From positions 6,076,001 to 6,140,000 of the forward strand of contig NZ_CP123923.1 of the NCBI RefSeq assembly GCF_030450125.1: a stretch of 64,000 nucleotides of DNA, in the 5' to 3' direction. The DNA comes from Streptomyces sp. WP-1 (GTDB lineage: Bacteria > Actinomycetota > Actinomycetes > Streptomycetales > Streptomycetaceae). The notes beneath the pieces were generated by a model. It ran no database searches. It saw only the letters and a list, made by a program, of their open reading frames with translations, and was not told the DNA's origin. Of this stretch, positions 8,283 to 47,434 are shown piece after piece (position 1 is the stretch's first letter; every line of letters begins with the position of its first letter). The position numbers and the translations under genes were made by a program.

Positions 8283-9787
8283 GCGGGCGCTCCCGGTGGG
8301 ATGAAGGGCAGTCCTTGCGGCGCGCCGGACTCGATGAGCCGCCACAGCGCGTCCGTGTCCGCGTGCTGTTCGATCAGATCGCCGAGCCGGTCCAGCTGCT
8401 CCTCGCGCAGCGCGGCGAAGGAGGTGTCCGGCGCGGGCACGAAGCGGCGGCCCGCGGCGGCGGCCACCTCGCGCAGGAAGGCCCGGCGGAAGCCGTCCGA
8501 CTCCAGTGAGCCGTGCCAGTGGGTGCCCCAGGTCGCGCCGACCCGGCAGCCGTCCAGGAAGGCTTCGCCTCCCGTGACGCGGGCGACGCCGTGGTGGATC
8601 TCGTACCCCTCGACCGGTTCGCCGAGGGCCCGGCCGGCGGGGCGGGTGAGGGTCTTCTCGCGGGCGAACCGCACCCGCACGGGCAGCAGTCCGAGGCCGG
8701 GGACCGCGCCGGCCCGCGACTCCACGTCGTCCTCGATGTGCTCGCCGAGGATCTGGAAGCCGCCGCAGATGCCGAGCACGGGCCGGTGCTCGGCGGCCCT
8801 GCGGGCGAGCGCGTCGGCGAGGCCGCGCTCGCGCAGCCACCGCAGCGCCCGGACGGTGCCCCGGGTGCCGGGGACGACGACCAGGTCGGCGTCGGCCAGC
8901 TCCTCCGGGCGGTCCACGAACCGCACCACGACGCCGGGTTCGGCGGCGAGCGCGTCCACGTCGGTGAAGTTGGACATCAGCGGGATCGCGCACACGGCGA
9001 CGCGCAGCACGTCCGCGCCGAGCGGGGGAGCGACGGCCGACTCCCGCACCGTGCCCCGCAGGGAGACGCGGAGGCCGTCCTCCTCGTCGATCCCGAGTCC
9101 GTGCCGGAACGGCAGCACGCCGTACGCCGGCCGCCCGGTGAGGCCCTTGAGCATGTCGAGGCCCGGCTCCAGCAGCGAGACGTCACCGCGGAACTTGTTC
9201 ACCAGGAACCCGGCGACCAGTTCCTGGTCCTCGGGGGAGAGCAGGGCGACGGTGCCGAAGAAGGAGGCGAAGACGCCGCCGCGGTCGATGTCGCCGACGA
9301 CGAGCACGGGCAGCCGGGCGCCGCGCGCGATCCCCATGTTGACGATGTCGGTGCGGCGCAGATTGATCTCGGCCGGGCTGCCCGCGCCCTCGCAGATCAC
9401 CGCGTCGTACTGCCCGCGCAGCTCGGCCAGGCAGTCCAGCACCGTGCCCAGCAGCCGCTGCCGGCGCCCGCCGTGGTAGCCGCGCGCGCTCATCTCGCCC
9501 ACCGGTTTGCCCAGCAGCACCACCTGGCTGCTCTGCTCGCCGCCCGGCTTGAGCAGCACGGGGTTCATCTGCGCGGTCGGCTCGATCCGGCACGCCTGGG
9601 CCTGCATGGCCTGCGCCCGGCCGATCTCGGCGCCCTCACGGGTGACGAAGGAGTTGAGGGACATGTTCTGCGCCTTGAACGGCGCGACCTTCACGCCCTG
9701 GCGCACCAGCCACCGGCAGATCCCGGCCGTCACGACGCTCTTGCCGGCGTCGGAGGTGGTGCCGGCGACGAGGAGACCACCGTTCAC
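8279..9787 (-). CDS. cobQ: Cobyric acid synthase
   Basis: Amidates carboxylates b, d, e and g of adenosylcobyrinic acid a,c-diamide, using glutamine and ATP. It has 502 residues. The N-terminal BioD-like P-loop is GTTSDAGKS at about 9-17. The C-terminal glutaminase has its Cys at about 341 ([11 protein letters not shown]) and a WGTHWHG motif downstream. The GTG start at 9787 overlaps the cobD stop as GTGA. It is the second gene of the riboswitch-led operon. The start could only be later if the P-loop were lost, so GTG 9787 is secure. Confidence 0.94.
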
Positions 9788-10737
9788 TTCCCGCGTCCCT
9801 TCGGTCCGTTGACGAAAAGGCGCGCGGCGAGTGTGGTGCCGAGCGCGAGCAGGCCGACGCGCCGGGAGAGCCGTACGGCCCGCCCGATGTCGGGGACTTG
9901 TACGGCCCGTCCGGCAGCGCCGTTGAGCACGGGCCGGTGTTCGACGCGGCCGCCGTAGGAGAGGGTGCCGCCCAGGCGGACGCCGAGGGCGCCCGCGAAG
10001 GACGCCTCCACGGGACCGGCGTTGGGGCTCGGATGGCGGCGGGCGTCCGCGCGCCAGGCCCGCAGGGCGCCGCGCGGATCGGGTCCGGCCGCGGCGGCGA
10101 GGACGGCGGTCAGCCGGGCCCCCGGCCAGCCGGCCACGTCGTCCAGGCGCGCGGACGCCCAGCCGAAGCGGCGGTACCGGGCGGACTTGTGACCCACCAT
10201 CGCGTCCAGGGTGTTGACGGCCCGGAAGCCCAGCAGCCCCGGCACCCCGGCGGCCGCGCCCCACACCAGGGCGCCCACGACCGCGTCGGAGGTGTTCTCG
10301 GCGACCGACTCGACCACGGCCCGTGCGATCCCGTCGGCGTCCAGCGCCTGCGGGTCCCGGCCGCACAGATGCGGCAGCCGGGCGCGGGCCGTCTCGATGT
10401 CCCCGGCCGTCAGGGCGGCCCCGATGGCCTCGGCCTCGCGGGCGAGGGAGGTGCCGCCGACGACGGCCCAGGCGGCCGCGGCGGTCAGGGCGGCGGAGGC
10501 GGCGGGGGAGGGGCGTACGACGTGTGCGGCCAGCGCTCCGAGCGCGACGGCGCCACCGGCGCACACGGTGGTGTGCAGGGTGCCCCAGCCGCGGTGGTCG
10601 TGCCACAACGCGCCCTCGACAGCGGCGGCCGCACGTCCGAACGCGGCGACCGGGTGCCCGCGGCGGGGATCGCCGAGGAGGAGGTCGCCGAGAAGTCCGG
10701 CGGCGGCGCCGTACGCGTAACTGCGATCGGCGGCCAT
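9784..10737 (-). CDS. cobD: Adenosylcobinamide-phosphate synthase
   Basis: Integral membrane CbiB/CobD family protein that attaches aminopropanol (or its phosphate) to adenosylcobyric acid. It has 317 residues. The family stretches [20 protein letters not shown] near the N-terminus and [19 protein letters not shown] in the middle are clear. Several hydrophobic segments are visible. It is the first recognised gene after the cobalamin riboswitch, and a tiny candidate leader ORF ends 4 nt before its ATG. It starts the chain of overlapping genes through cobQ to cobI. Confidence 0.92.
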
Positions 10738-10741
10738 CGGC

Positions 10742-10801
10742 TCAGTCGGCCGTGGTCACCGTGGCGGTGGTCCTGGTACTGGTCCTTCGGCAGCCGGGCA
10801 T
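10742..10801 (-). CDS. Candidate 19-codon leader ORF between riboswitch and cobD
   Basis: An ATG at 10801 opens a 19-residue frame (MPGCRRTSTRTTATVTTAD) rich in Thr and Arg. It ends in TGA at 10744-10742, only 4 nt before the cobD ATG. A purine-rich stretch (GAGTGAGGA) lies about 10 nt upstream of the ATG and could be a ribosome site. It sits immediately after the cobalamin riboswitch, so it could translationally couple cobD to riboswitch-controlled initiation. I do not recognise the peptide; it may be chance. Confidence 0.3.
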   Translation of the reverse strand: MPGCRRTSTRTTATVTTAD

Positions 10802-10844
10802 GGCGATGTGTCCTCACTCAGGGTGTCCGCGCCCTGGTTCGACG

Positions 10845-10990
10845 TGATCGGCGGCGAGAGTTCCTGGCTACCCGGGGAGTTCTTCCCCGGTGACAGTGGC
10901 GGGACCGCGCCGGATTCGCACCGGCTTCCTCTCCTGCTGCCGTACATGGCGTGGGCAGTCCACCACGCCCCCGGAACGGCCGTCAACTTG
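10845..10990 (-). promoter_or_regulatory. Cobalamin (AdoCbl) riboswitch upstream of the cob operon
   Basis: On the minus strand the invariant core GGAAGCCGGTGCGAATCC, followed by the GGTCCCGCCACTGT element, covers 10893-10929. A B12-box-like segment (TAGCCAGGAACTCTCGCCGCC) lies at 10850-10870. The order and spacing match the cobalamin riboswitch class. It precedes cobD by about 110 nt, so B12 should repress the whole cobD-to-cobI unit, probably at translation initiation. The 5' limit near 10990 is approximate. Confidence 0.93.
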
Positions 10991-11049
10991 CCGTTGACCT
11001 GCGGGAGTGTGCAGATTCCCACACCACGAGGGGTGGCCGGGCACGCGAG

Positions 11050-11083
11050 AGGCTCCCCTGCCGCGGGCGGCGGAGGGGAGCCT
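11050..11083 (-). terminator. Hairpin terminator after the phosphate-transport genes
   Basis: A perfect 10-bp inverted repeat (AGGCTCCCCT/AGGGGAGCCT) with a 14-nt loop sits 38 nt past the stop of the small membrane protein gene and upstream of the cob riboswitch. It has no long U run, as is common in Streptomyces. It would insulate the cob operon from read-through. Confidence 0.7.
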
Positions 11084-11120
11084 TCGGGAAACTGCCGGGA
11101 CCCGGGACCGGGCCCCGGGC

Positions 11121-11348
11121 TCAGGACTTGGAGACGATGAGGAGGATGCCGTACGCCACCGCCGCCGCGCAGGCCGCGAAGCAGACGTAGGCGCCGGTGA
11201 CGGCGAGCGTGGCGGAGCCGCCCTCGGCCGCGGCCTTCTCGCGCCGGGCCAGGCCGTTGACGCCGAGGGTGAACAGGACCACCAGGCCGACGGTGAACGC
11301 GAGGCTGACGCCGAAGACGGAGCCGATGGCCGCCCAGTCGATCTTCAT
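11121..11348 (-). CDS. Small membrane protein linked to the PiT transporter
   Basis: A 75-residue protein with two hydrophobic segments (about 8-30 and 47-70) separated by a short charged loop (ARREKAAAEGG). It lies 32 nt downstream of the phosphate transporter gene on the same strand and ends before a strong hairpin, so the two are likely co-transcribed. A role beside phosphate transport is an inference from position only; I recognise no domain. The ATG start at 11348 follows a weak purine-rich stretch. Confidence 0.75.
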   Translation of the reverse strand: MKIDWAAIGSVFGVSLAFTVGLVVLFTLGVNGLARREKAAAEGGSATLAVTGAYVCFAACAAAVAYGILLIVSKS

Positions 11349-11380
11349 GGGGTTGCTTCCTTGGTGAACGGGGCTCGGGG

Positions 11381-12649
11381 TCAGACGGTGGCGGCCGGCG
11401 GGGCCGCGGCGGCGGGGGCCGCCGGTCCGGCGGCCGGGGCCTGTGCGGGGGCCGGGATGGTGGCCGTGAGGTCCTCGGTGATCGTGCCGGCGGGCGGGGG
11501 GCTCACCGCGGCGATGGCGGTGGTCACCACGCCGGAGGGCTCCGCGGCCGGGTCGGCGACCACATTGGTGTGGTCGATGACCTCGCGCCGGGACAGCTTG
11601 TAGATCCAGGCGCTCGCGGCGACCAGGAAGACGGCGACCGCCGCGGTGCCCCCGTCACCGAGTTCGGTGACGGCCTCGGCGCCCGCGCCGACCAGCGCGG
11701 CGGCCGGCAGGGTGAGCACCCAGGCGACGGCCATCCGGGTCGCGGTGGACCAGCGGACCACACCGCCCTTGCGGCCGAGACCCGAGCCCATCACCGCGCC
11801 GGAGACGACATGGGTGGTGGAGAGGGAGAAGCCGAGGTGGGAGGAGGCCAGGATGGCGGTCGCGGCGCTGGTCTGCGCGGCGAAGCCCTGCCGGGGCTCC
11901 AGATCGGTCAGGCCCGTGCCCATGGTGCGGATGATGCGCCAGCCGCCGATGTAGGTGCCGAGCGCGATGGCGAGGCCCGCGGAGAGGATCACCCAGGTGG
12001 GAGGGTTGGAGCCGGGGGCGATGGCGCCGCCCGCGATCAGCGCGAGGGTGATGATGCCCATCGTCTTCTGCGCGTCGTTGGTGCCGTGCGCGAGGGAGAC
12101 CAGCGCGGCGGAGGCGACCTGGCCGACGCGGAAGCCCTTGCGGGTGGCCTCGCCCTCGGTCCTGGTGCCGGCGCCGTAGGAGAGCCGGGTGGCCACCAGC
12201 GCGGCGATCCCCGCCACGACCGGCGCGGCGACCGCGGGCAGCAGCACCTTGGTGACCAGGACCCCGCCGTGCACGGCGCCGAATCCGGCGGAGGCGACGG
12301 CGGCGCCGATCAGACCGCCCATCAGGGCGTGCGAGGAACTGGAGGGCAGGCCCACCAGCCAGGTCAGCAGGTTCCAGAGGATCGCGCCGACCAGGGCGGC
12401 GAAGATGACCTCGGGGCGGATGCCGCTCTCGTCGACGAGTCCCTTGGAGATCGTGTTGGCGACCTCCACGGAGAGGAAGGCGCCCACCAGGTTGAGGGTG
12501 GCGGACATGGCTACCGCGAGCTTCGGCTTCATCGCGCCGGTGGAGATGGTGGTGGCCATCGCGTTCGCGGTGTCGTGGAAACCGTTCGTGAAATCAAACG
12601 CGAGTGCGGTGACCACCACAATCGCGAGGATCAGCGAGAAGCTTTCCAT
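11381..12649 (-). CDS. pit: Low-affinity inorganic phosphate transporter (PiT family)
   Basis: Integral membrane metal-phosphate:H+ symporter, 422 residues. The PiT signature GFHDTANAMATTISTGA lies at about 23-39, and its internal repeat partner SLAHGTNDAQKTMGI is in the middle, as expected for the duplicated PiT fold. Many hydrophobic helices are visible, with an Ala/Pro-rich C-terminal tail. Its ATG lies only 12 nt after the lysozyme gene, and PHO-box-like repeats lie just upstream inside that gene's 3' end, suggesting PhoP control. S. coelicolor carries similar pitH genes. Confidence 0.93.
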   Translation of the reverse strand: MESFSLILAIVVVTALAFDFTNGFHDTANAMATTISTGAMKPKLAVAMSATLNLVGAFLSVEVANTISKGLVDESGIRPEVIFAALVGAILWNLLTWLVGLPSSSSHALMGGLIGAAVASAGFGAVHGGVLVTKVLLPAVAAPVVAGIAALVATRLSYGAGTRTEGEATRKGFRVGQVASAALVSLAHGTNDAQKTMGIITLALIAGGAIAPGSNPPTWVILSAGLAIALGTYIGGWRIIRTMGTGLTDLEPRQGFAAQTSAATAILASSHLGFSLSTTHVVSGAVMGSGLGRKGGVVRWSTATRMAVAWVLTLPAAALVGAGAEAVTELGDGGTAAVAVFLVAASAWIYKLSRREVIDHTNVVADPAAEPSGVVTTAIAAVSPPPAGTITEDLTATIPAPAQAPAAGPAAPAAAAPPAATV

Positions 12650-12661
12650 TTACCCAGACAA

Positions 12662-13558
12662 TCATTCGAGGTCGTTGTCCGGATGAACGTAGGCAACCTG
12701 GGTGAACGGAAGATGAACTGGGGCGGGCAGGGTGGTGTCCGCGTCGGGGGTATGAGGCTCCGCTTCCGCTTCCGGAACCCCCGGTGCCCGTGCACCGCTT
12801 GGGTCGCCGGCCGTGGCGAAGGTCCGCAGCCTGCTGGAGCTGCCGTTGAAGAGATTCTGGTCACCCGGCAGCCGGCCGGAGGTGGCGTGCTGCCAGAAGG
12901 TCCAGTACTGCCAGCCGCCCGGCAGCCTGCCCGGGTCCGAGGAGCCGTGGCGGGCGACCCACAGGGGGTGGCGGGAGGCGAAGGCGTGGCTGTCGCCGGT
13001 GCACTGCCTCCACCAGTGGGCCGTGGTGTAGATCACGGGACGGCGGCCGGTCTCGCGGGCGATCTCGTCGCTGAACGACCAGATCCAGGCCGTCATGCGC
13101 TTCCAGCCCAGCCTGTAGCAGGGGTGCTTCGCACTGTACGGGTTGTACTCGATGTCCAGCGCGGGCGGCAGCGTCCAGCCGTCGGGCCGCCAGTCCCCGC
13201 CGTGCGCCACGAAGTACCGGGCCTGCGTGGCGCCGGAGGACTCGTCGGGCAGCGCGAAGTGGTAGGCGCCGCGGATCAGTCCCGCGTCGCGGGCGCCGTC
13301 GTACTGCTGGTGGAAATAGGGGTTGCGGTAGCCCGTGGACTCGGTCGCCTTGACGTAGACGAAGCGCGCCCCGCGGGCCCGCGCGGCCGGCCAGTCCACC
13401 GTCTTCTGGTGGGACGACACGTCGTGCCCCCTGGGCAGGCTCGCGACCCGCTCCGGGGGGCCGGCCGCGGCGGTGGCGGCGCAGGTGAGGGTGAGGGCCG
13501 CGGTGGTCGCGGCGAGGGCACCGGCGCGGCGGCGGAGGTGGGTGCGGTGACGGGCCAT
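12662..13558 (-). CDS. Secreted GH25 lysozyme (N,O-diacetylmuramidase type)
   Basis: Hydrolyses the beta-1,4 bonds of peptidoglycan outside the cell. From ATG 13558 the protein has 298 residues with an Arg-rich n-region and a hydrophobic signal peptide (about 1-33). The GH25 domain follows: GHDVSSHQ (first catalytic Asp), FVYVKATES, GAYHFALP, and ALDIEYNPY (second acidic pair). The C-terminal 40 residues are Pro/Glu-rich and probably disordered; their codons also carry the PHO-box-like repeats. The in-frame extension upstream of 13558 lacks a signal-peptide shape, so the later ATG is preferred. Confidence 0.9.
   Translation of the reverse strand: MARHRTHLRRRAGALAATTAALTLTCAATAAAGPPERVASLPRGHDVSSHQKTVDWPAARARGARFVYVKATESTGYRNPYFHQQYDGARDAGLIRGAYHFALPDESSGATQARYFVAHGGDWRPDGWTLPPALDIEYNPYSAKHPCYRLGWKRMTAWIWSFSDEIARETGRRPVIYTTAHWWRQCTGDSHAFASRHPLWVARHGSSDPGRLPGGWQYWTFWQHATSGRLPGDQNLFNGSSSRLRTFATAGDPSGARAPGVPEAEAEPHTPDADTTLPAPVHLPFTQVAYVHPDNDLE
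12682..12718 (-). promoter_or_regulatory. PHO-box-like direct repeats upstream of pit
   Basis: On the minus strand there are GTTCATC (12718-12712) and GTTCACC (12707-12701), spaced 11 bp apart. They are followed by a degenerate GTTGCCT (12697-12691) and another GTTCATC (12688-12682). Units of GTTCACC with 11-bp periodicity are the known PhoP-binding PHO box of Streptomyces. The element ends about 33 nt before the pit ATG and lies inside the lysozyme coding region. Confidence 0.65.
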
Positions 13559-39168: not shown

Positions 39169-40560
39169 TTATACGCCCTGGCTGACAGAACTCATGTTGA
39201 AATCGGGGACCCGCAGCGGCGGCATCGCGGCCCTGGTGAACCAGTCGCCCCATTCGCGCGGCAGCGTCTTCTCCGTGCGGCCCGCCTCGATCGCGCGCCG
39301 CAGCAGGTCCACCGGCGACTCGTTGAACCGGAAGTTGTTCACCTGCCCGGTCACCTCGCCGCCCTCCACCAGGTAGACGCCGTCCCGGGTCAGGCCGGTG
39401 AGCAGCAGCGTCGCCGGGTCGACCTCGCGGATGTACCACAGGCAGGTCAGCAGCAGCCCGTGCCCGGTGTCCGCGACCATCTCGTCCAGGGAGCGGTTGC
39501 CGCCGTCCAGGATCAGATTGTCCGCCGCCGGGGTGACCGGCAGCCCGGTCAGGGCCGCGCTGTGCCGGGTCGTCGTCAGGTTCTTCAGGGTGCCGCGCTC
39601 GATCCAGTCGGTGGCCGGCGCCGCGAGGCCGTTGTCGAACACCGACCGGTCGCCGTTCGAGGAGTGGGCGATCACGAAGGGCGCGCACTCCAGACCGGGC
39701 TCGTCCGGGTCGCTGCGCAGGGTCAGGGGCAGTTCGGAGAGCCGCTCGCCGATCCGGGTGCCGCCGCCGGGCCGGGAGAAGACCGTACGGCCCTCCGCCG
39801 CGTCCCGGCCCGAGGCCGACCACAGCTGGTAGATGAGCAGGTCCGCCACCGCGGTCGGCGGCAGCAGCGTCTCGTAGCGGCCCGCGGGCAGCTCCACGCG
39901 CCGCTTCGCCCAGCCCAGCCGCGTCGCCAGCTCGGCGTCCAGGGCGGCCGGGTCGACGTCCTTGAAGTCCCGGGTGGAGCGCCCGGCCCACGCGGAGCGG
40001 GTGCGGTCCGGCGACTTGGCGTTCAGCTCCAGCGTGCCGGTCGGCTGGTCGTGCCGCAGCCGCAGCCCGGTGGAGCTGCCGAGGTAGGTCGAGACCATCT
40101 CGTGGTTGGCGAAGCCGTACAGCTCCCGGCCGCCGGCCCGGGCGCGGGCGAACGCCTCGCCGAGCGCCGGGGCGAAGTCGGCGAACACCGCGGAGGAGGT
40201 CTCGGCGGGCGCGTCCGTGAAGTCGGGGGCCGCGGCCGCGCCCGTGACCAGCGGCTGAGCGTCCTCGGCGGGGCCCGCGCCGCGCGCGGCGGCCTCGGCG
40301 GCCCGCACCAGCGGCTCCAGTTCGTCGGCCGTCACCGCCGACCGGGAGACGACCCCGGAGGCCGTGCCCTGCCGGCCGTCCACGGTCGCGATCACCGTGA
40401 GGCTGCGGCCCCGGGTCACACCGTTCGTGGTGAGCGCGTTGCCCGCCCAGCGCAGGTTGGCGGTGGACGTCTCGTCGGCGATGACGAGGCAGCCGTCCGC
40501 CCGGGACAGCGCGAGCGCCTGTTCGACGATCTCGTGCGGCTTGTTGCTACGGGCGCTCAT
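39169..40560 (-). CDS. pmbA: TldE/PmbA-type subunit of a TldD/E metalloprotease
   Basis: A 463-residue protein of the TldD/PmbA fold. It lacks the HExxxH motif, as expected of the non-catalytic partner TldE. Motifs include [39 protein letters not shown] and [17 protein letters not shown]. It would form a heterodimer with the TldD encoded at 45908-47434, degrading unfolded peptides or maturing peptide natural products. The ATG at 40560 overlaps, as ATGA, the stop of a short frame that is a remnant of a tldD 3' end. Normally tldD is directly upstream; here about 5.3 kb intervenes. Confidence 0.9.
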
Positions 40561-40616
40561 CGACCGGCCTCCTGCGTGGTGTTCGAGACGGCGACGCCCC
40601 GGAACAGGGCGAAGGG
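40557..40616 (-). pseudogene. Remnant of a tldD 3' end, upstream of pmbA
   Basis: The minus-strand frame ending at the TGA that overlaps the pmbA start reads [19 protein letters not shown]. The true TldD C-terminus at 45908 reads PSALFRGVNILNTASESGR: 12 of 19 positions identical, with the same reading frame relative to the stop. Upstream of this piece the frame (to 40913) bears no TldD similarity. This is the leftover end of an ancestral tldD that once overlapped pmbA. Confidence 0.75.
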
Positions 40617-40772
40617 CAACCATGGGGCGGTGGATCCGTGCTGAGCGTACCCACCGACCGTGGGGGCGAGGGCCGTTATGCGTGCCGAGCCCGGCGCTCC
40701 CGCCACCGCCGGGGCCCGGTAAGGCTTGCCTTGCTTTCTGATCGGTCCGGCCTTTACGGTGAAGACCATGAA

Positions 40773-40793
40773 GTCCTCAGAGGACCTGAGGAC
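40773..40793. promoter_or_regulatory. Candidate operator before the amidase operon
   Basis: The perfect palindrome GTCCTCAGAGGAC (40773-40785) overlaps a second arm (GTCCTCA ... TGAGGAC, 40773-40793), followed by another TGAGGA that serves as ribosome site. A possible promoter (TTGCTT 40731-40736, 18 nt, TACGGT 40755-40760) would place the site just after the RNA start. The GntR protein encoded two genes downstream is the obvious candidate ligand; GT...AC ends fit that family. Confidence 0.5.
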
Positions 40794-40806
40794 CTGAGGA
40801 TTCGGG

Positions 40807-42246
40807 GTGGCCATGACAGACCTCCATGACCTGACGCTCACCGAACAGGCCGCAGCGATCCGCGGCCGTACCGTGTCGCCGACCGAGCTGATCGACCACC
40901 ACCTGCGCCGCATCGAGGAGTCGAACAGCGCGCTGGGCGCCTACCGCACCGTCGACGCGCCCGGCGCCCGGCGGGCCGCCGCCGCCGTCGAGGCCCGGCT
41001 GGCCGCCGCGCCCGACGACGAGGGACTGCCGCCGCTGCTCGGGGTGCCGCTGTCGGTGAAGGACACCTGGCCGGTCGAGGGACTGCCGTTCACGGCGGGC
41101 TCGGCGGCCTTCGACGACCGGACGGCCCCGGCGGACGCGGCCGTCGTGGGCACCCTGCGGGCGGCCGGCGCCGTGCTGCTGGGGACCACCACCGCCGCCG
41201 AGTTCGGCTGTTCCTCCTACACCGAGACGGTGTTCGCCACCGCCCGCAACCCGTACGACCTCACCCGCGGGGCCGGTGGCTCCAGCGGCGGAGCGGCCGC
41301 CTCGGTGGCCGCGGGACTGGCCGCCGGCGCCCTCGGCAGCGACGGCGGCGGCTCGGTCCGCATCCCGGCCGCGGCCTGCGGAGTGGTCGGTCTCAAGCCG
41401 AGCCGGGGACGGGTCTCGCCCGCCCCCGCGACGGACGCGCTGGGGCTCGCCACCGCCGGGCCACTGGCCAGGACGGTGGCGGACGCCGCCCTGCTGCTGG
41501 ACGTGATGACCGGCAGCATCCCGGGCGACGCCGCCGCCCTGCCCGCCCCGCCCGCCGGGTACTTCCGGGCCCGCGCCGGACAGGAGCCCGGTCCCCTGCG
41601 GATCGGGGTGCTGCCGCGGACCGAGAGCCAGCACCCCGAGGCGGCACTGGCCTGCCGCCGTACCGCCGACCTGCTCGCCGGACTCGGCCACCACGTGACG
41701 GACGCCCCGCCGTACGACCCCGCCGAGTACCTGGCGGACTTCACCGTGCTGTGGAGCGTGCTGGCGGCCGCGGTGCCGGTGCCTCCCGCGAGGGAGACAC
41801 GTCTGCTGCCCCTCACCCGCTGGCTGCGCGACCGGGGCCGCGAGCACGGCGCGGTACGGCTGTACGCGGCGATGGCCTCGCTGTCGGCCACCGCCCGCGC
41901 CCTGTGCCACCGCTACGCCGACTTCGACGCCGTACTGAGCCCGACCACGGACCGACCGCCGCTGCCGGTCGGCTCGTCGGCCGACCCCGACGACCCCGAG
42001 CGCACCTTCCGGCGGATGCTCGCCCACACCCCGCGCACCCCACTGGCGAACCTCACCGGACAGCCGTCGATCAGCCTGCCGCTGCACCGGACGCCGGACG
42101 GTCTGCCGGTCGGCGTGATGCTGACCGGCCGGCTCCACGAGGAGGGCGTCCTGCTCTCCCTCGGCGCCCAGCTGGAACGGGCCCGGCCCTGGCCCCGCCA
42201 CGCCGCCCGGCCGGTGGCGGCGCTGCCCGAGCGGACGGCGCGATGA
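40807..42246 (+). CDS. Amidase signature family hydrolase
   Basis: A 479-residue Ser-cisSer-Lys amidase. Lys is in LSVKDTWPVEG, cis-Ser and nucleophile are in RGAGGSSGGAAASVAAG, and GSDGGGSVRIPAAACGVVGLKPS is the signature core. GTG 40807 has TGAGGA 6 nt upstream; ATG 40813 is the alternative. It could hydrolyse an amide substrate that the adjacent MFS protein transports. It is not GatA, since no gatB/gatC are present. First gene of an amidase-MFS-GntR unit. Confidence 0.9.
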   Translation: MAMTDLHDLTLTEQAAAIRGRTVSPTELIDHHLRRIEESNSALGAYRTVDAPGARRAAAAVEARLAAAPDDEGLPPLLGVPLSVKDTWPVEGLPFTAGSAAFDDRTAPADAAVVGTLRAAGAVLLGTTTAAEFGCSSYTETVFATARNPYDLTRGAGGSSGGAAASVAAGLAAGALGSDGGGSVRIPAAACGVVGLKPSRGRVSPAPATDALGLATAGPLARTVADAALLLDVMTGSIPGDAAALPAPPAGYFRARAGQEPGPLRIGVLPRTESQHPEAALACRRTADLLAGLGHHVTDAPPYDPAEYLADFTVLWSVLAAAVPVPPARETRLLPLTRWLRDRGREHGAVRLYAAMASLSATARALCHRYADFDAVLSPTTDRPPLPVGSSADPDDPERTFRRMLAHTPRTPLANLTGQPSISLPLHRTPDGLPVGVMLTGRLHEEGVLLSLGAQLERARPWPRHAARPVAALPERTAR

Positions 42247-43538
42247 AGCGCGGCCGGCTGGCCTTCCTGACCGGCACCCATGTCGTCAACGACCTGTACC
42301 AGGGCGCGGTCCCGGCGCTGCTGCCCTTCCTGACGGCCGAACGGCACTACAGCTACACCGCCGTCTCGGGCATCGCGCTCGCGGCCGGCGGCCTGTCCAG
42401 CCTCGCCCAGCCGCTCTTCGGCCTGCTGGTGGACCGCCGCCACCGCGGCTGGCTCATCCCGGGCGGCTTCCTCACCGCCGCGGGCGGGCTCGCCTGCGCG
42501 GGGCTGGCCGGCAGCTACCCGCTCACCTGGCTCTGCGTCGCCCTGGCCGGGATCGGCATCGCCGCCTACCACCCGCCCGCCACCAATGAGGCCCGGGCCG
42601 CGGGCGGGCAGTCCCAGCGGGCGATGAGCCTGTTCTCGGTCGGCGGCACGCTGGGCGCCTCGCTGGCACCGGCGCTGGTCACCCTCGTGGTCGGCTCGTT
42701 CGGCCTGGCGGGCAGCTGGCTGCTGGCCGTGCCCGCCCTGGTCACCGCCGCGCTCTGGGCCGCGCAAGGGCCCTGGCTGCGGCACCGCGGACACACACCG
42801 GCGGCCCCGGCGACCGCGCGGGGCACGGTGGCGGGCGGGCACCGGGACGACTGGCGGGCGTTCCGGCGCCTGGCCGCGGCCACCGTCGCCTGGTCGGTGC
42901 CGTATGTGACGGTCACCTCCATGCTCGCCCTGCACATCCACCGCGACCTGAACGCCTCGACGGCCGTCGGCGCCACGGCGCTCACCCTGCTCACCCTGGC
43001 CGGGGCGGCGGGCACCCTGCTCGGCGGCTGGCTGGGCGACCGGTACGGACGGACGGTGCCGATCCGCGCCGGCTATCTGCTGGCCGTACCCGCCCTGGCC
43101 GCGCTGGCGTTCGCCCCGTCCGCGGGCGTGGCCGTGGTGGCCGCGGCGCTCTTCGGGTTGACCATGTTCCTGCCGTTCGCCTCCCAGGTGACGCTGGCCC
43201 AGGACTATCTGCCCACCCGGCCCGGCACCGCCGGCGGGCTGACCCTCGGGCTCGCCATGTCCGTGGGCGCGCTGGCCGCACCGGCGCTCGGTCGGCTGGC
43301 CGACGCCCAGGGGCTGCGCACGGTTCTCGCGCTGGTGCTCGGCGTGCTGCTGGTCGCACTCGGCTGCGCCCTCCGGCTGCGCGACCGCGTGCTGCCGACT
43401 CCGGCTCCGGCTCCGGCAGCGGCGACGGCGGCCGAGCCGGTGTCCGAGCCGGTGTCCGAGCCGGCCGCGGGCCCGGCGGGTCGAGGGGGCCGGACCTCGG
43501 CCGCACACGGTGCCGGTGGCCCCATGGGCCCGCTGTAG
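42243..43538 (+). CDS. MFS transporter, fosmidomycin-resistance-like
   Basis: A 431-residue 12-helix major facilitator. The N-terminal TGTHVVNDLYQGAVPALLPFL stretch is typical of the Fsr-like group. LGGWLGDRYGRTVPIR is the central MFS loop motif. The C-terminal tail is Ala/Pro/Glu-rich with tandem EPVS repeats. The ATG overlaps the amidase stop as ATGA, showing coupling. Substrate unknown: drug efflux or amide uptake are possible. Confidence 0.87.
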   Translation: MKRGRLAFLTGTHVVNDLYQGAVPALLPFLTAERHYSYTAVSGIALAAGGLSSLAQPLFGLLVDRRHRGWLIPGGFLTAAGGLACAGLAGSYPLTWLCVALAGIGIAAYHPPATNEARAAGGQSQRAMSLFSVGGTLGASLAPALVTLVVGSFGLAGSWLLAVPALVTAALWAAQGPWLRHRGHTPAAPATARGTVAGGHRDDWRAFRRLAAATVAWSVPYVTVTSMLALHIHRDLNASTAVGATALTLLTLAGAAGTLLGGWLGDRYGRTVPIRAGYLLAVPALAALAFAPSAGVAVVAAALFGLTMFLPFASQVTLAQDYLPTRPGTAGGLTLGLAMSVGALAAPALGRLADAQGLRTVLALVLGVLLVALGCALRLRDRVLPTPAPAPAAATAAEPVSEPVSEPAAGPAGRGGRTSAAHGAGGPMGPL

Positions 43539-43547
43539 GGTCGTCCC

Positions 43548-44249
43548 ATGACTGTCCGACCGGTACGCCACAGCTCGTTGGTCGAGGAGGCCGTCGCCGA
43601 GCTCCGCCGACTGATCGGTACGGGCGAGTGGCCGGTCGGGGCCAAGCTCCCGGGCGAGGTGGAGCTGAGCCGGCTGCTCGGCGTCGGCCGGACCACCTCG
43701 CGCGAGGCGGTCCGGGTGCTGATCGCCGACGGCCAGCTGTCCGCCCGGCACGGCTCGGGCACCTACGTCGTCGCCGCCGCCCCGGTCTCGCAGTTCGACC
43801 GGGAGCTGCGCCGCGCGGAGGTCTTCGACGTGTACGAGGTCCGCGCCGCGCTGGAGGTGGAGGCGGGCCGGCTGGCCGCGCGGCGGCGCACCCAGGAGGA
43901 CGTGGCCGCGTTGCGGGCCGCACTGGCAGCCCGCGACGCGGCGGCCGACCCGGCCGCGCTCATCGAGGCGGACCTGGACCTGCATCGCCGGGTGGTGCTG
44001 GCCGCGCGCAATCCGGTGCTCGTCCGGCTCTTCGACTCCTTCGTCGGCGCCCTGCGCGAGGCGGCCGGGCAGCTGCTGGCCGACACCGACCTGCACGGCG
44101 CCGAGGAACGGCACGCGATCAACCGCGCGCACCACGCGCTGGTCGAGGCGATCGCGGCCGGGGACCCGGACGCCGCCGTCGAGGCGACCCGCGGCAATCT
44201 GGACCGCACCCTGGACGAGCTGCGCGCCGAGGGCGTCGGGCCGCGCTGA
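43548..44249 (+). CDS. FadR-subfamily GntR transcriptional regulator
   Basis: A 233-residue regulator. Its winged HTH (about 10-75) has LPGEVELSRLLGVGRTTSREAVRVL and GSGTYVV, and its FCD effector domain (about 85-225) has DLDLHRRVVLAARNPVL and HHALVEAIAAGDPDAA with the usual metal/carboxylate-binding His/Asp residues. It lies 9 bp after the MFS gene and probably controls the amidase-MFS operon through the palindrome at 40773. Confidence 0.9.
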   Translation: MTVRPVRHSSLVEEAVAELRRLIGTGEWPVGAKLPGEVELSRLLGVGRTTSREAVRVLIADGQLSARHGSGTYVVAAAPVSQFDRELRRAEVFDVYEVRAALEVEAGRLAARRRTQEDVAALRAALAARDAAADPAALIEADLDLHRRVVLAARNPVLVRLFDSFVGALREAAGQLLADTDLHGAEERHAINRAHHALVEAIAAGDPDAAVEATRGNLDRTLDELRAEGVGPR

Positions 44250-44285
44250 GCGCGGCCCGACGGCGGGCGGGCCCCGGCCGGAGGA

Positions 44286-44906
44286 TCATCCCTTACGGGC
44301 CAGGAAGCGGATCTGCCGGTCGCCCGGCTGCCGGGACTCGACGTCCTCGAAGCCGCTGCGGTACAGGCGCCCTGGCAGGGTCCCGGGGTCGAGCACCAGC
44401 ATGGTGTCGCCGATGTGCAGCAGCCGGAAACGCAGGCTGGGCAGGCTGTCCACGCCCCGGAACACCCCGCCCGGCCGCAGCACACGGCACGCCTCGGCGA
44501 ACAAGGCGTCCTGGAGTTCGGCGGAAGGCACATGGTGCAGCATGGTGAAGCAGACGACGGCGGAGAACCGTCCGTCCGGAAAGGGCAGCCGGGTGCCGTC
44601 GCCGTGCACGATCTCGGCCCGGCCGGCGAACTCGGCACGCAGCAGGGCCGCGGAGGCCCGGTCGATCTCGACGGCGGTCAGCCTCGCCGCGGCGGACGAC
44701 CCCGTGGCGGGTGCCGCCCTTGTGGCGGGGGCCGCCTTCGCCAGGTGCGACAACAGCGCGCGGGTGGTGGCTCCGAAGCCGGGACCGATCTCCAGGACGT
44801 CGTCCCCGAGGTCGACGCCGGCCAGCAGCTCGGGCATGCGTTCGGCCACGCCGGCGGCCCAGCGCGCGGAGCTGCATATCTTGCGATGCGGGTAATTCAT
44901 CGGCAT
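44286..44906 (-). CDS. SAM-dependent class I methyltransferase
   Basis: A 206-residue Methyltransf_11-type enzyme. Motif I is DDVLEIGPGFGATTRALL, motif II is LTAVEIDRASAALL, and the later motif is VVCFTMLHHVPS with LRPGGVF. A low-complexity Ala/Thr insertion lies between motifs I and II. Substrate unknown. It is convergent with the GntR gene and divergent from the AraC gene, and part of the block that separates tldD from pmbA. Confidence 0.87.
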   Translation of the reverse strand: MPMNYPHRKICSSARWAAGVAERMPELLAGVDLGDDVLEIGPGFGATTRALLSHLAKAAPATRAAPATGSSAAARLTAVEIDRASAALLRAEFAGRAEIVHGDGTRLPFPDGRFSAVVCFTMLHHVPSAELQDALFAEACRVLRPGGVFRGVDSLPSLRFRLLHIGDTMLVLDPGTLPGRLYRSGFEDVESRQPGDRQIRFLARKG

Positions 44907-45010
44907 GGTGCGACTCTAGGAAGGCCGCTCGACGGCCGCGAGATCCGCCGGGGCCGGACGATGTCGTACAGAGGCCGGGGCCCGGACGACGAACGCTCTG
45001 GAGTGACCGG

Positions 45011-45808
45011 GTGACCTCTTCGGGTTCTGGCGGCTTACCGGCCCCTCACATGATGTCCGCGGCGGAGATCGAGCTGGGGGAGGGCGCCACTTCGGTGGGG
45101 CCCCTGCCGCTCCCGGCCGGCCGGTGGTTCCGGGCGCACGACCATCCGCGGCACCAACTCGCCTGGGCCGTCAGGGGGGTTCTGGGAGTGACGGTCGGCG
45201 ACGAGACCTGGGTGCTGCCGACCACCCGGGCCCTGTGGATCCCCGCCGGAACCGTGCACCGCACCGGCGCCCCACGCGACACGGTCCTGCACAGCCTGTA
45301 CGTGGATCCGACCCGCTGTCCGCTGGACTGGCCGGCGCCGGTCGCGGTCGGTGTCGGCGCCCTCCTGGCCCAACTGCTGGCCCACCTCGGCCGCTTCGAC
45401 CTCGCGCCGGACGCGCGGCACCGCGCGGAGGGTGTGGTCTTCGACCTGCTCCGCCCGCTGGCGAGCGCGCCGATCACCGTGCCCGAACCCGTCGACGACC
45501 GCGCCCGGGCGGTGGCCGCCCTGCTGCTGGACGACCCCGCCGACACGCGCACGCTGGAGGCGCTCGCCCGCGCGGTCGGCAGCAGCCGCCGGACCCTGAG
45601 CCGGCTCTTCGTGCGGGACACCGGGATGAGCTTCGACCGCTGGCGCACCCGGCTGAGACTGCGTGCGGCCCTGCCGCTGCTCGCCGAGGGCCGATCGGTC
45701 GCCCACGCGGCCCGGGCCGTCGGCTACGCCACGCCCAGCGCCTTCCTCGCGGCCTTCCGCCGGGCCGTCGGCACCACCCCCCGGCGCTATCTGCACCACG
45801 CGGACTGA
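45011..45808 (+). CDS. AraC family transcriptional regulator with a TTA codon
   Basis: A 265-residue regulator. An N-terminal cupin domain (AHDHPRHQLAWAVRGVLGV, LWIPAGTVHRTGAP) is followed by two HTH motifs in the C-terminal AraC domain (LEALARAVGSSRRTLSRLF and SVAHAARAVGYATPSAFLAAFRR). GTG 45011 has GGAGTGA 7 nt upstream. With this start codon 9 is TTA (45035-45037), the rare leucine codon read by the bldA tRNA. An ATG at 45050 would avoid it. It is likely a regulator of neighbouring genes. Confidence 0.88.
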   Translation: MTSSGSGGLPAPHMMSAAEIELGEGATSVGPLPLPAGRWFRAHDHPRHQLAWAVRGVLGVTVGDETWVLPTTRALWIPAGTVHRTGAPRDTVLHSLYVDPTRCPLDWPAPVAVGVGALLAQLLAHLGRFDLAPDARHRAEGVVFDLLRPLASAPITVPEPVDDRARAVAALLLDDPADTRTLEALARAVGSSRRTLSRLFVRDTGMSFDRWRTRLRLRAALPLLAEGRSVAHAARAVGYATPSAFLAAFRRAVGTTPRRYLHHAD

Positions 45809-45845
45809 AACCGCCCCCGCGGGTGAAACAGCCCCGGCGGGTGAA

Positions 45846-45867
45846 AGGCCCTCCCGGAGAAGGGCCT
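45846..45867. terminator. Hairpin between the AraC gene and tldD
   Basis: AGGCCCT, an 8-nt loop, AGGGCCT in the 99-bp convergent gap. Two CGGGTGAAA copies precede it. Short stem, moderate strength. Confidence 0.45.
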
Positions 45868-45907
45868 CGCCTCCCGCGCCCCGGCGGCCGGGTGTGCCGC
45901 GACCACG

Positions 45908-47434
45908 TCAGGAACGGCCGGACTCGCTCGCGGTGTTCAGGATGTTCACACCGCGGAACAGTGCGGACGGGCACCCGTGCGACACGGAGGCGACCTGCCC
46001 CGGCTGGGCCTTGCCGCAGTTGAAGGCGCCGCCCAGGACGTACGTCCCGGGGCCGCCGACCGCCGCCATCGAACCCCAGAAGTCGGTCGTGGTGGCCTGG
46101 TAGGCGACGTCCTTGAGCTGCCCGGCGAGCCGCCCGTTCTCGATCCGGAAGAAGCGCTGCCCGGTGAACTGGAAGTTGTAGCGCTGCATGTCGATCGACC
46201 AGGAGCGGTCCCCGACCACGTAGATGCCCCGCTCCACGCCCCCGATCAGATCCTCGGTGGACAGCCCCGCCGGGTCCGGCCGCAGCGACACGTTGGCCAT
46301 CCGCTGCACCGGCACATGGGCGGGGGAGTCGGCGTACGCGCACCCGTTGGACCGCTCGAACCCGGTCAGCCGGGCGATCCTGCGGTCCAGCTGGTAGCCG
46401 ACCAGCGTGCCGTCCTTCACCAAATCCCAGGACTGCGCCTCGACGCCCTCGTCGTCGTACCCGATGGTGGCCAGGCCGTGCTCGGCGGTGCGGTCGCCGG
46501 TGACGTTCATCAGCTCGGAGCCGTACCTGAGCTTGCCCAGCTGGTCGAAGGTGGCGAAGGAGGTGCCGGCGTACGCCGCCTCGTAGCCGAGCGCGCGGTC
46601 CAGCTCGGTGGCGTGCCCGATGGACTCGTGGATGGTCAGCCACAGGTTGGACGGATCGACCACCAGGTCGTACAGGCCCGGCTCCACGCTCGGCGCCCGC
46701 ATCTTCTCGGCCAGCAGCTCCGGGATCCGCGCCAGCTCGTCGTCCCAGTCCCAGCCGGTCCCGGTCAGGTACTCCCAGCCGCGCCCGGCCGGCGGCGCCA
46801 GTGTCCGCATGGAGTCGAACTCCCCGCTGGACCCGTCCACCGACACCGCGGTCAGCTCGGGGTGCAGCCGCACCCGCTGCTGGGTCGTGACGGTCCCGGC
46901 TGTATCCGCGTAGAACTTGTTCTCGTGCACGGCGAGCAGCGAGGCGTCCACATGGCTCACCCCGTCCGTCGCCAGCAGCCGCGCGCTCCACTCCGCGAGC
47001 AGCGCCGCCTTCTCCTCGGCCGGCACGGCGAACGGATCGATCTCGTACGACGAGACCCACGTCCGGTCGGCGTGCACCGGCTCGTCGGCGAGTTCCACCC
47101 GCTCGTCCGACCCCGCGGCCTTGATCACCTGCGCGGACAGCTTGGCCATGGCGACCGCCTGCGAGGCGACCCGGGCCGCCGCGTCCAGGGTCAGATCGAC
47201 CCCGGAGGCGAAGCCCCACGTACCGCCGTGCACGACCCGGACCGCGTACCCGAGGTCGGTGGTGTCCGAGGACCCCGAGGGCCGGGCGTCGCGCAGCCGC
47301 AGCGCCGCGCTGCGCACCCGCTCGAAGCGGAAGTCCGCGTGCTCGGCCCCGAGCGAACGCGCGCGGGCGAGCGCGGCGTCGGCGAGGGACCTGAGCGGAA
47401 GCGCGGTGAAGGCTTCGTCGATGGAATGGGGCAC
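45908..47434 (-). CDS. tldD: TldD metalloprotease subunit
   Basis: A 508-residue catalytic subunit of the TldD/TldE protease. The zinc motif HESIGHATELD carries the HExxxH ligands. Other hallmarks are YAVRVVHGGTWGFASG and LGGAFNCGKAQPGQVASVSHG, and the C-terminus PSALFRGVNILNT. Its partner PmbA is encoded at 39169-40560, more than 5 kb downstream, with unrelated genes between. It is divergent from fabG. Confidence 0.92.
   Translation of the reverse strand: MPHSIDEAFTALPLRSLADAALARARSLGAEHADFRFERVRSAALRLRDARPSGSSDTTDLGYAVRVVHGGTWGFASGVDLTLDAAARVASQAVAMAKLSAQVIKAAGSDERVELADEPVHADRTWVSSYEIDPFAVPAEEKAALLAEWSARLLATDGVSHVDASLLAVHENKFYADTAGTVTTQQRVRLHPELTAVSVDGSSGEFDSMRTLAPPAGRGWEYLTGTGWDWDDELARIPELLAEKMRAPSVEPGLYDLVVDPSNLWLTIHESIGHATELDRALGYEAAYAGTSFATFDQLGKLRYGSELMNVTGDRTAEHGLATIGYDDEGVEAQSWDLVKDGTLVGYQLDRRIARLTGFERSNGCAYADSPAHVPVQRMANVSLRPDPAGLSTEDLIGGVERGIYVVGDRSWSIDMQRYNFQFTGQRFFRIENGRLAGQLKDVAYQATTTDFWGSMAAVGGPGTYVLGGAFNCGKAQPGQVASVSHGCPSALFRGVNILNTASESGRS

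What the first reader, a model, noticed from the sequence alone, without database searches (positions are those of the whole stretch)
39169..47434. tldD-pmbA protease operon split by a 5-kb block, with a tldD 3' remnant left behind
TldD and its partner PmbA/TldE normally sit together. Here amidase, MFS, GntR, methyltransferase and AraC genes lie between them. Next to pmbA, a frame reading [19 protein letters not shown] ends in a TGA that overlaps the pmbA ATG. This matches the TldD C-terminus (PSALFRGVNILNTASESGR, 12/19 identical) but its DNA is clearly diverged. Possible explanations: an ancestral tldD was replaced by a second copy carried with the block, or an insertion duplicated the gene end and the remnant drifted.
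Basis: partly seen in the sequence, partly recalled or inferred. Interest (0 to 1): 0.75.

Follow-up and report, generated by a model that had tools for sequence, protein, structure and literature searches.

The report
Scar of mobile DNA in tldD
The odd gene fragment is the original end of the protease gene tldD, pushed away from its partner by mobile DNA that lands at one exact spot in this gene and brings its own replacement ending; here the mobile machinery has since gone and five unrelated genes sit in its place.

Summary
Confirmed: tldD and pmbA are 5.35 kb apart, and the frame next to pmbA is a true tldD 3' remnant (alignment score 45; best of 1582 other window tiles 15, best of 1000 shuffles 16). 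It matches the native tldD end of close relatives; the intact tldD has a foreign-type end (last ~28 codons).

Relatives show the cause. AICE-type elements (tyrosine integrase, RepSA, sometimes FtsK-like Tra) integrate at one site in tldD, core AACTTCCARTTYAC, about 85 codons before the stop. They carry a replacement tldD end and leave the native end on pmbA. All 10 named integrase loci lie beside tldD. Streptomyces phage Success carries the same integrase beside a tldD end. At least 22 of 392 genomes are split. S. griseofuscus, a close relative, still has the integrase and shares the window's shortened remnant.

The window's five genes are not element genes and were found as a unit in no other sampled genome; how they replaced the element is unknown. 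The element arm also puts a start codon in frame before the displaced end, which should keep pmbA translationally coupled (inferred). My searches found no report of a tldD site.

The parts
39169..40560 (-). pmbA/tldE, intact
   Evidence: Pfam PmbA_TldD domains 1-3; one match in the genome
40557..40625 (-). native tldD 3' remnant (from HGCP to the stop; TGA overlaps the pmbA ATG); its last 24 nt are the pmbA ribosome-binding region
   Evidence: 59 of 71 aligned columns with the tldD ends of G351/G003; control; last 24 nt 24/24 identical to the G003 end, the 48 nt before only 30/48 in an ungapped count that the slip lowers
40557..40691 (-). stretch shared with Streptomyces griseofuscus DSM 40191 (L108): remnant plus ~65 nt upstream of it, same shortened form
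   Evidence: blastn W 8810-13000 to L108, 95.1% over 4255 nt
40807..42246 (+). amidase
   Evidence: PF01425
42243..43538 (+). MFS transporter
   Evidence: PF07690; MFS-GntR pair also in G359 at 63% aa identity each
43548..44249 (+). GntR/FCD regulator
   Evidence: PF00392, PF07729
44286..44906 (-). methyltransferase
   Evidence: PF08241; 74% aa identity to G173; matches to this gene and to the AraC gene lie next to each other in 7 genomes of the capped list
45050..45808 (+). AraC/cupin-type regulator (start codon chosen by eye)
   Evidence: PF12833, PF00165, PF02311 in the longer ORF 44711-45808
45908..45994 (-). last ~28 codons of the intact tldD: element-type (foreign) tail
   Evidence: Codons 481-507: identity up to 90% with element-type tails (15 of 31 such rows above 83%), at most 83% with native tails; identity to G351 in 60-nt bins is 90-100% along the gene, then 85% and 71% in the last two bins
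45995..47434 (-). native part of tldD; the attB core AACTTCCAGTTCACC lies at codons 420-424 and is uninterrupted here

Best explanation
The split is the decayed scar of site-specific integration into the 3' part of tldD. A tyrosine integrase, carried by AICE-type elements and by at least one phage, recombines a short core in tldD with a copy on the element. The element supplies a replacement tldD end, so the interrupted gene stays whole, and the original end stays attached to pmbA together with pmbA's ribosome-binding site (shown by comparison in relatives). The ancestor of the window's organism and S. griseofuscus carried such an integration, and its displaced native end was later shortened (inferred from the shared remnant). 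In the window's line the integrase and rep genes are gone and an amidase-MFS-GntR plus methyltransferase-AraC set occupies the place; part of the tldD tail (codons 424-480) has returned to the native sequence by recombination (inferred). The pmbA ribosome-binding segment was kept while the rest of the remnant drifted (shown). In intact elements the arm next to the core also adds a start codon and a 21-codon leader in frame with the displaced end, which should let ribosomes still reach the pmbA start (shown as sequence, function inferred).
For: 10 of 10 named integrase loci (8 full length, 2 partial) lie directly downstream of tldD. 9 of 9 genus genomes with an integrase match of at least 70% identity have it at tldD; three of the named loci are probably the same records as three of these. 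Phage Success gp10 is a tldD end beside the integrase. 19 of 20 split genomes other than the window have the element-type tail. Tails of split genes plus phage against native tails plus remnants: 1 change on the tail tree when W, L071 and one tandem copy are set aside (4 with them), but 14 changes on the tree of gene bodies. S. griseofuscus (L108) keeps the integrase and rep pieces and shares the window's remnant. The window's last 28 codons are element-like. Leader in frame in 12 of 12 chromosomal junctions printed and in the phage.
Against: The window itself has no integrase trace and one weak rep hit only (E 0.008), and no attP arm; nor was an arm found in S. griseofuscus. Its tldD is native through the core and up to about codon 480, so the window's own junction is not at the core. 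The element-like tail is only 28 codons long, and 16 of 31 element-type rows are no closer to it than the best native row. Of 21 split genomes tested with the L069 integrase, 8 have it whole or in part and 13, the window among them, do not; for these the link rests on tails, remnants or arms. G351, as close to the window as S. griseofuscus is, has an intact native pair, so excision or later recombination must be assumed if the insertion is older than that split. The five block genes match no element gene.
Confidence: 0.82

Rival explanations
1. The five-gene block entered by ordinary homologous recombination with another strain whose tldD-pmbA pair was already split; the crossover fell inside tldD near codon 480, giving the mosaic gene. 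The mobile element was involved only in the donor's history.
For: The tldD mosaic breaks near codon 480 rather than at the core; the block is bounded by tldD on one side and by the shared remnant on the other.
Against: No donor with this block was found among 391 other genomes. Not exclusive of the best explanation; it is one way to get from the S. griseofuscus-like state to the window.
Confidence: 0.4
2. A transposon or insertion sequence carried the block in and duplicated the end of tldD.
For: A duplicated gene end flanks the block.
Against: No transposase among the block genes; the repeats listed in the block are short and imperfect (which shows 20 of 34 direct families and 25 of 89 inverted pairs). 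The two tldD ends differ far more than a recent duplication would, and the copy at pmbA is the native one.
Confidence: 0.03
3. Tandem duplication of the whole tldD-pmbA pair followed by loss of one copy of each gene.
For: It would leave a tldD end next to pmbA.
Against: Remnants in ten other genomes start at one core, integrases sit at the junction in part of the split genomes, and tails group apart from gene bodies.
Confidence: 0.03

Closest known systems
AICEs, the actinomycete integrative and conjugative elements of the pSAM2 type (PMC3218068 and PMC9513070, passages read)
   Same: Tyrosine integrase next to one att site and RepSA initiator; in L114 also an FtsK/SpoIIIE protein and a GntR protein, in L113 ORFs that look alike by eye. 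Decay and mixed cargo at one site are described for AICEs (PMC9513070 passages).
   Different: AICEs with tyrosine integrases sit mostly in tRNA genes, with the pSLS integrase subfamily as a stated exception whose site the passages do not name (PMC3218068); I did not test whether the tldD integrase belongs to it. Insertion in protein genes is reported (14, against 36 in tRNA genes, PMC9513070), but the passages I read do not name tldD. No Tra gene was seen in the ORF lists of L067, L069, L107 and L109.
PAISt island at the 3' end of bacA in Streptomyces (PMC4057263, abstract and passages read)
   Same: Tyrosine recombinase, insertion at the 3' end of a protein gene, a duplicated 3' end at the far side, integrase remnants and decayed att sites in fixed islands.
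   Different: Other gene, other core, other size (674 kb). A leader that keeps the next gene coupled is not mentioned in the passages read.
Streptomyces phage Success (NC_073472)
   Same: Integrase 87.7% identical over 415 aa, the same core, and a tldD end beside it.
   Different: A 57-kb phage rather than an AICE; gp10 is annotated only as a metalloprotease and no attP is marked in the stretches read.
TldD/PmbA (TldE) metalloprotease pair
   Same: Pfam domains, each found once in the genome, HExxxH in TldD (HESIGH; meaning of the motif recalled).
   Different: The two genes are 5.35 kb apart instead of overlapping by 4 nt.

Membership tests
AICE | site-specific integrase | tested here: not met
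   Window block: no match to the L069 integrase. Met in L067, L069, L070, L084 and L107-L114.
AICE | RepSA-type replication initiator | tested here: not met
   Window block: one hit of E 0.008 only. Met in L069 and L114 (PF20199).
AICE | FtsK/SpoIIIE-type transfer protein | tested here: not met
   Window block genes: none. Met in L114 (PF01580); L113 has an ORF that looks alike by eye.
Site-specific integration in tldD | common core at both junctions | tested here: not met
   The window's remnant does not reach the core. Seen in nine of ten genomes with long remnants, in some with substitutions, and in the phage.
Site-specific integration in tldD | native 3' end displaced next to pmbA | tested here: met
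Site-specific integration in tldD | element-type end on the intact tldD | tested here: inconclusive
   Only the last ~28 codons.
Site-specific integration in tldD | shared descent with a locus that still has the integrase | tested here: met
   S. griseofuscus L108.
TldD/PmbA pair | all three PmbA_TldD domains in each protein | tested here: met
Transposon insertion | transposase and terminal inverted repeats | tested here: not met
pSLS integrase subfamily of AICEs | integrase of that subfamily, site not in a tRNA gene | not tested
   The pSLS integrase was not compared; subfamily known only from PMC3218068 passages.
Active integration | recombination between attP and tldD in cells | not testable with these tools
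   needs an experiment

The most novel reading that the evidence does not exclude
The 3' part of tldD is a shared landing site for AICEs and phages across Streptomyces, and their attP arm does two repairs at once: it restores the interrupted gene with a spare 3' end, and it puts a start codon and a 21-codon leader in frame before the displaced native end, so that the downstream partner pmbA keeps its overlapping stop-start coupling. After the element dies, only the ~24 nt that start pmbA are kept.
Probability: 0.55. Interest if true: 0.6.

Novelty: new variant of a known kind. Interest (0 to 1): 0.5.

Why it matters
It turns an unexplained gene fragment into a readable record of repeated integration at one protein gene, with stages from full element to bare scar in different species. 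It gives a candidate integrase and attachment site for Streptomyces genetics, offers a reason why the TldD C-terminus varies between strains, and suggests that mobile DNA can protect the gene downstream as well as the one it interrupts.

Tried and rejected
Rejected: transposon insertion and pair duplication (see rivals). Tried without result: promoter scan upstream of pmbA (no sigma-70-like site); search for an attP arm in the window and in L108 (scores within 20 shuffles each); search for integrase, rep or HTH genes in the window block (only one rep hit, E 0.008); search for the block elsewhere (listed partial matches of about 65-84% identity); the integrase in plasmids (37 records, all under 60% identity); in phages 346 records matched, of which the two records of phage Success at 80-90% and 344 under 60%. 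Paper searches; two gave no paper, the others gave listings in which I saw no title or abstract start on a tldD site. The three papers whose tldD passages I read report no phage or AICE attachment site there, but one lists regions of genomic plasticity beside tldD in Photorhabdus and Xenorhabdus and one a toxin cluster downstream of tldD in Yersinia. Supplementary tables could not be read, so a tldD entry in one of them is not excluded.

Against my reading: L071 and the window do not have the element signature at codons 424-480; L025 and L093 have that signature although their pairs are adjacent (gap 2 and 82 nt), which I read as mosaic scars. 13 of 21 split genomes show no trace of the L069 integrase. 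The labels printed were wrong by a script fault (all complete genes marked E); one search repeats the count with labels by gap. In those trees two genomes stand twice (L002/L087 and L003/L089), and L113-L115, whose pmbA lies outside the stretch, were counted as split because the integrase follows tldD. The genomes looked at closely were chosen by me for low or double tldD matches (58 of 392, plus G351 and G003), so the share of split genomes is a lower bound and the trees are enriched for splits. An AraC-like match in G173 falls on the reverse of the methyltransferase gene and is not used.
Full report
Check of the observation. tldD (45908-47434, -) and pmbA (39169-40560, -) are intact and 5.35 kb apart, with amidase, MFS, GntR, methyltransferase and AraC genes between them. 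The frame upstream of pmbA is a tldD 3' end. Aligned to the native tldD end of the relative G003 it scores 45; the best of 1582 other tiles of the window scores 15 and the best of 1000 shuffles 16. It matches the native ends of G351 and G003 (59 of 71 aligned columns, score 45) better than the window's own intact gene (score 25). So the remnant is the old native end.

What is normal. Of the 37 genus genomes in the relatives search (the window's own included), 34 have tldD and pmbA on one contig, 31 with a gap under about 100 nt; the split ones are G000 (the window), G018 and G036. The usual native gene ends ..NTTQEAGR and its TGA overlaps the pmbA ATG. The two nearest of the 391 other genomes by listed PmbA identity, G351 (97% aa) and G003 (94%), have the native layout.

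Recurrence. Searching 392 genus genomes with the TldD C-terminus and with PmbA gave genomes with two C-terminal matches or with low C-terminal scores. I took 58 of these plus G351 and G003 for a closer search and fetched loci of the split ones. Twenty genomes besides the window have a gap over 700 nt or, for G357, lie on two contigs; G077 adds one more. With the window that makes at least 22 of 392; genomes not fetched were not all measured.

The site. Ten genomes carry a remnant of at least about 85 codons (L061, L067-L074, L085). In nine of the ten the junction between native and foreign sequence in the complete gene falls at the same place, codons 420-424 (for G357 seen in L084); the complete gene of L071 looks native on both sides. 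The core AACTTCCARTTYAC is shared by most full genes, remnants and the phage, with substitutions in L070, L072, L073 and one L074 copy. The replacement ends read FT[GQE]QRA[YF].I instead of FTGQRF[FY].I; 19 of the 20 split genomes other than the window have this type, L071 being the exception. In L074 two remnants lie one behind the other, as expected for a tandem of two elements.

The machinery. L067, L069, L070 and L084 carry a 415-aa tyrosine integrase just downstream of tldD, and a rep gene, whole or in pieces. L061, L068, L072 and L074 keep integrase fragments; the other 13 of 21 split genomes, the window among them, show no trace of this integrase. In the genus sample nine genomes have a match of 70% identity or more, all nine at tldD; one search scored up to four candidates per genome at E 1e-60. 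Three weaker matches (35-41%), in G010, G244 and a second place of G357, were not looked into. L114 (Actinacidiphila) has integrase, RepSA, an FtsK/SpoIIIE protein and a GntR protein; L113 looks alike by eye; a 62-aa HTH_17 protein in L109 resembles an excisionase. These are the modules of AICEs.

A phage with the same site. Streptomyces phage Success carries an integrase 87.7% identical over 415 aa. Next to it lies gp10, annotated metalloprotease, 110 aa. gp10 is a TldD C-terminus (PF19289) that begins, after a leader, at the same core. So the phage holds the spare tldD end expected of attP; integration by this phage is inferred, not shown.

Trees. For codons 424-507 (80 rows), the split genes plus phage against native genes plus remnants need 4 changes on the tree, or 1 if W, L071 and the element-type tandem copy L074_rem are set aside. 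For the bodies of the genes (codons ~1-422, 65 rows) the split label needs 14 changes, at least 10 of them forced by well-supported branches. The deepest fork of the tail tree is weakly supported (60). The tails thus have a history of their own and the integrations were many. Two genomes stand twice in these trees.

The window and S. griseofuscus. S. griseofuscus DSM 40191 (L108) has tldD and flanks 95-96% identical to the window. It keeps the integrase and pieces of rep in a 3.0-kb gap, and its sequence before pmbA is the same shortened remnant with the same ~65 nt upstream. The integration is therefore inferred to be shared by descent. The window's interior shows no integrase or arm and only one weak rep hit. 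The intact tldD of the window is a mosaic: codons 424-480 are 97-98% identical to G351 and G003; codons 481-507 are up to 90% identical to element-type tails (15 of 31 such rows above 83%, 12 without the probable repeats) and at most 83% to native tails. Body identity does not settle whether the window is nearer to G351 or to S. griseofuscus (96.6 and 95.9% in tldD, 96.0% each in pmbA).

The block. As a unit it was found in none of 391 other genomes; single genes or pairs match at about 65-84% DNA identity in scattered places (capped list, one or two candidates scored per genome). MFS and GntR stand together in G359 (63% aa each). Matches to the methyltransferase and AraC parts lie next to each other in seven genomes of that list (G035, G088, G105, G132, G278, G374, G377). 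It looks like a composite of two chromosomal sets. No transposase or element gene is present among the five. How it came in is not shown.

What happens to pmbA. In 12 of 12 chromosomal junctions printed and in the phage, the arm before the core has a start codon and a leader in frame with the tldD end; in 11 chromosomal junctions the ORF is 109 codons, in L061 the script took a longer frame, and in the phage it is 110. In the chromosomal cases its stop overlaps the pmbA start. In old scars (no long remnant) the last 24 nt before pmbA stay close to the native sequence of G003 while the 48 nt before them mostly do not (ungapped counts): W 24/24 against 30/48, L108 24/24 against 17/48, L065 23/24 against 14/48, L078 23/24 against 21/48, L079 21/24 against 19/48, L082 21/24 against 16/48, L076 22/24 against 23/48, L083 23/24 against 31/48; L077 is the exception with 15/24, and L075 keeps 40/48. 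L076, L077 and L078 still hold recognisable pieces of the element arm; L065 and L079 are weaker (20 shuffles each). That the leader keeps pmbA translationally coupled is inference.

What is known. AICEs with tyrosine integrases sit mostly in tRNA genes, the pSLS integrase subfamily being an exception (PMC3218068, passages); whether the tldD integrase belongs to that subfamily was not tested. Some AICEs sit in protein genes, and decay at a site is described (PMC9513070, passages). PAISt inserts at the 3' end of bacA and leaves a duplicated end (PMC4057263, abstract and passages). Searches for a tldD site found none in the held library. The novelty claimed is the site, its use by both AICEs and a phage, and the coupling-preserving arm; the mechanism class is known.

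Noticed in passing
L093 (G404) and junctions of G015, G024, G148, G230, G240, G253, G303, G358: In L093 an insert of about 86 nt with hairpin-like text and a repeated target end sits between tldD and pmbA; the spacings listed for the other genomes are about 83-86 nt, and G160 and G219 have about 172 nt, as if doubled. Similar text stands before pmbA in L074, L076 and L078 (by eye).
   Followed up: no
L092 (G164): The tldD tail is partly repeated in another frame and no stop is met, so tldD and pmbA read as one long frame; possibly a scar left by recombination between two tldD ends.
   Followed up: no
L025 (G023), L093 (G404): Adjacent pairs whose tldD has the element signature (AY) at codons 428-429 but a native last end: possible scars of lost elements.
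   Followed up: partly
15 of 392 genus genomes (such as G008, G010, G112, G145, G162): Both tldD and pmbA give no match, so the pair seems to be lost together in some lineages or missing from the assemblies.
   Followed up: no
L071 (G161): The full tldD end and the displaced copy are nearly identical apart from the last codons, as if one had converted the other.
   Followed up: partly
L075 (G193): Split pair with a gene set resembling a molybdenum hydroxylase (by eye) and a remnant cut to 28 codons, much like the window's.
   Followed up: no
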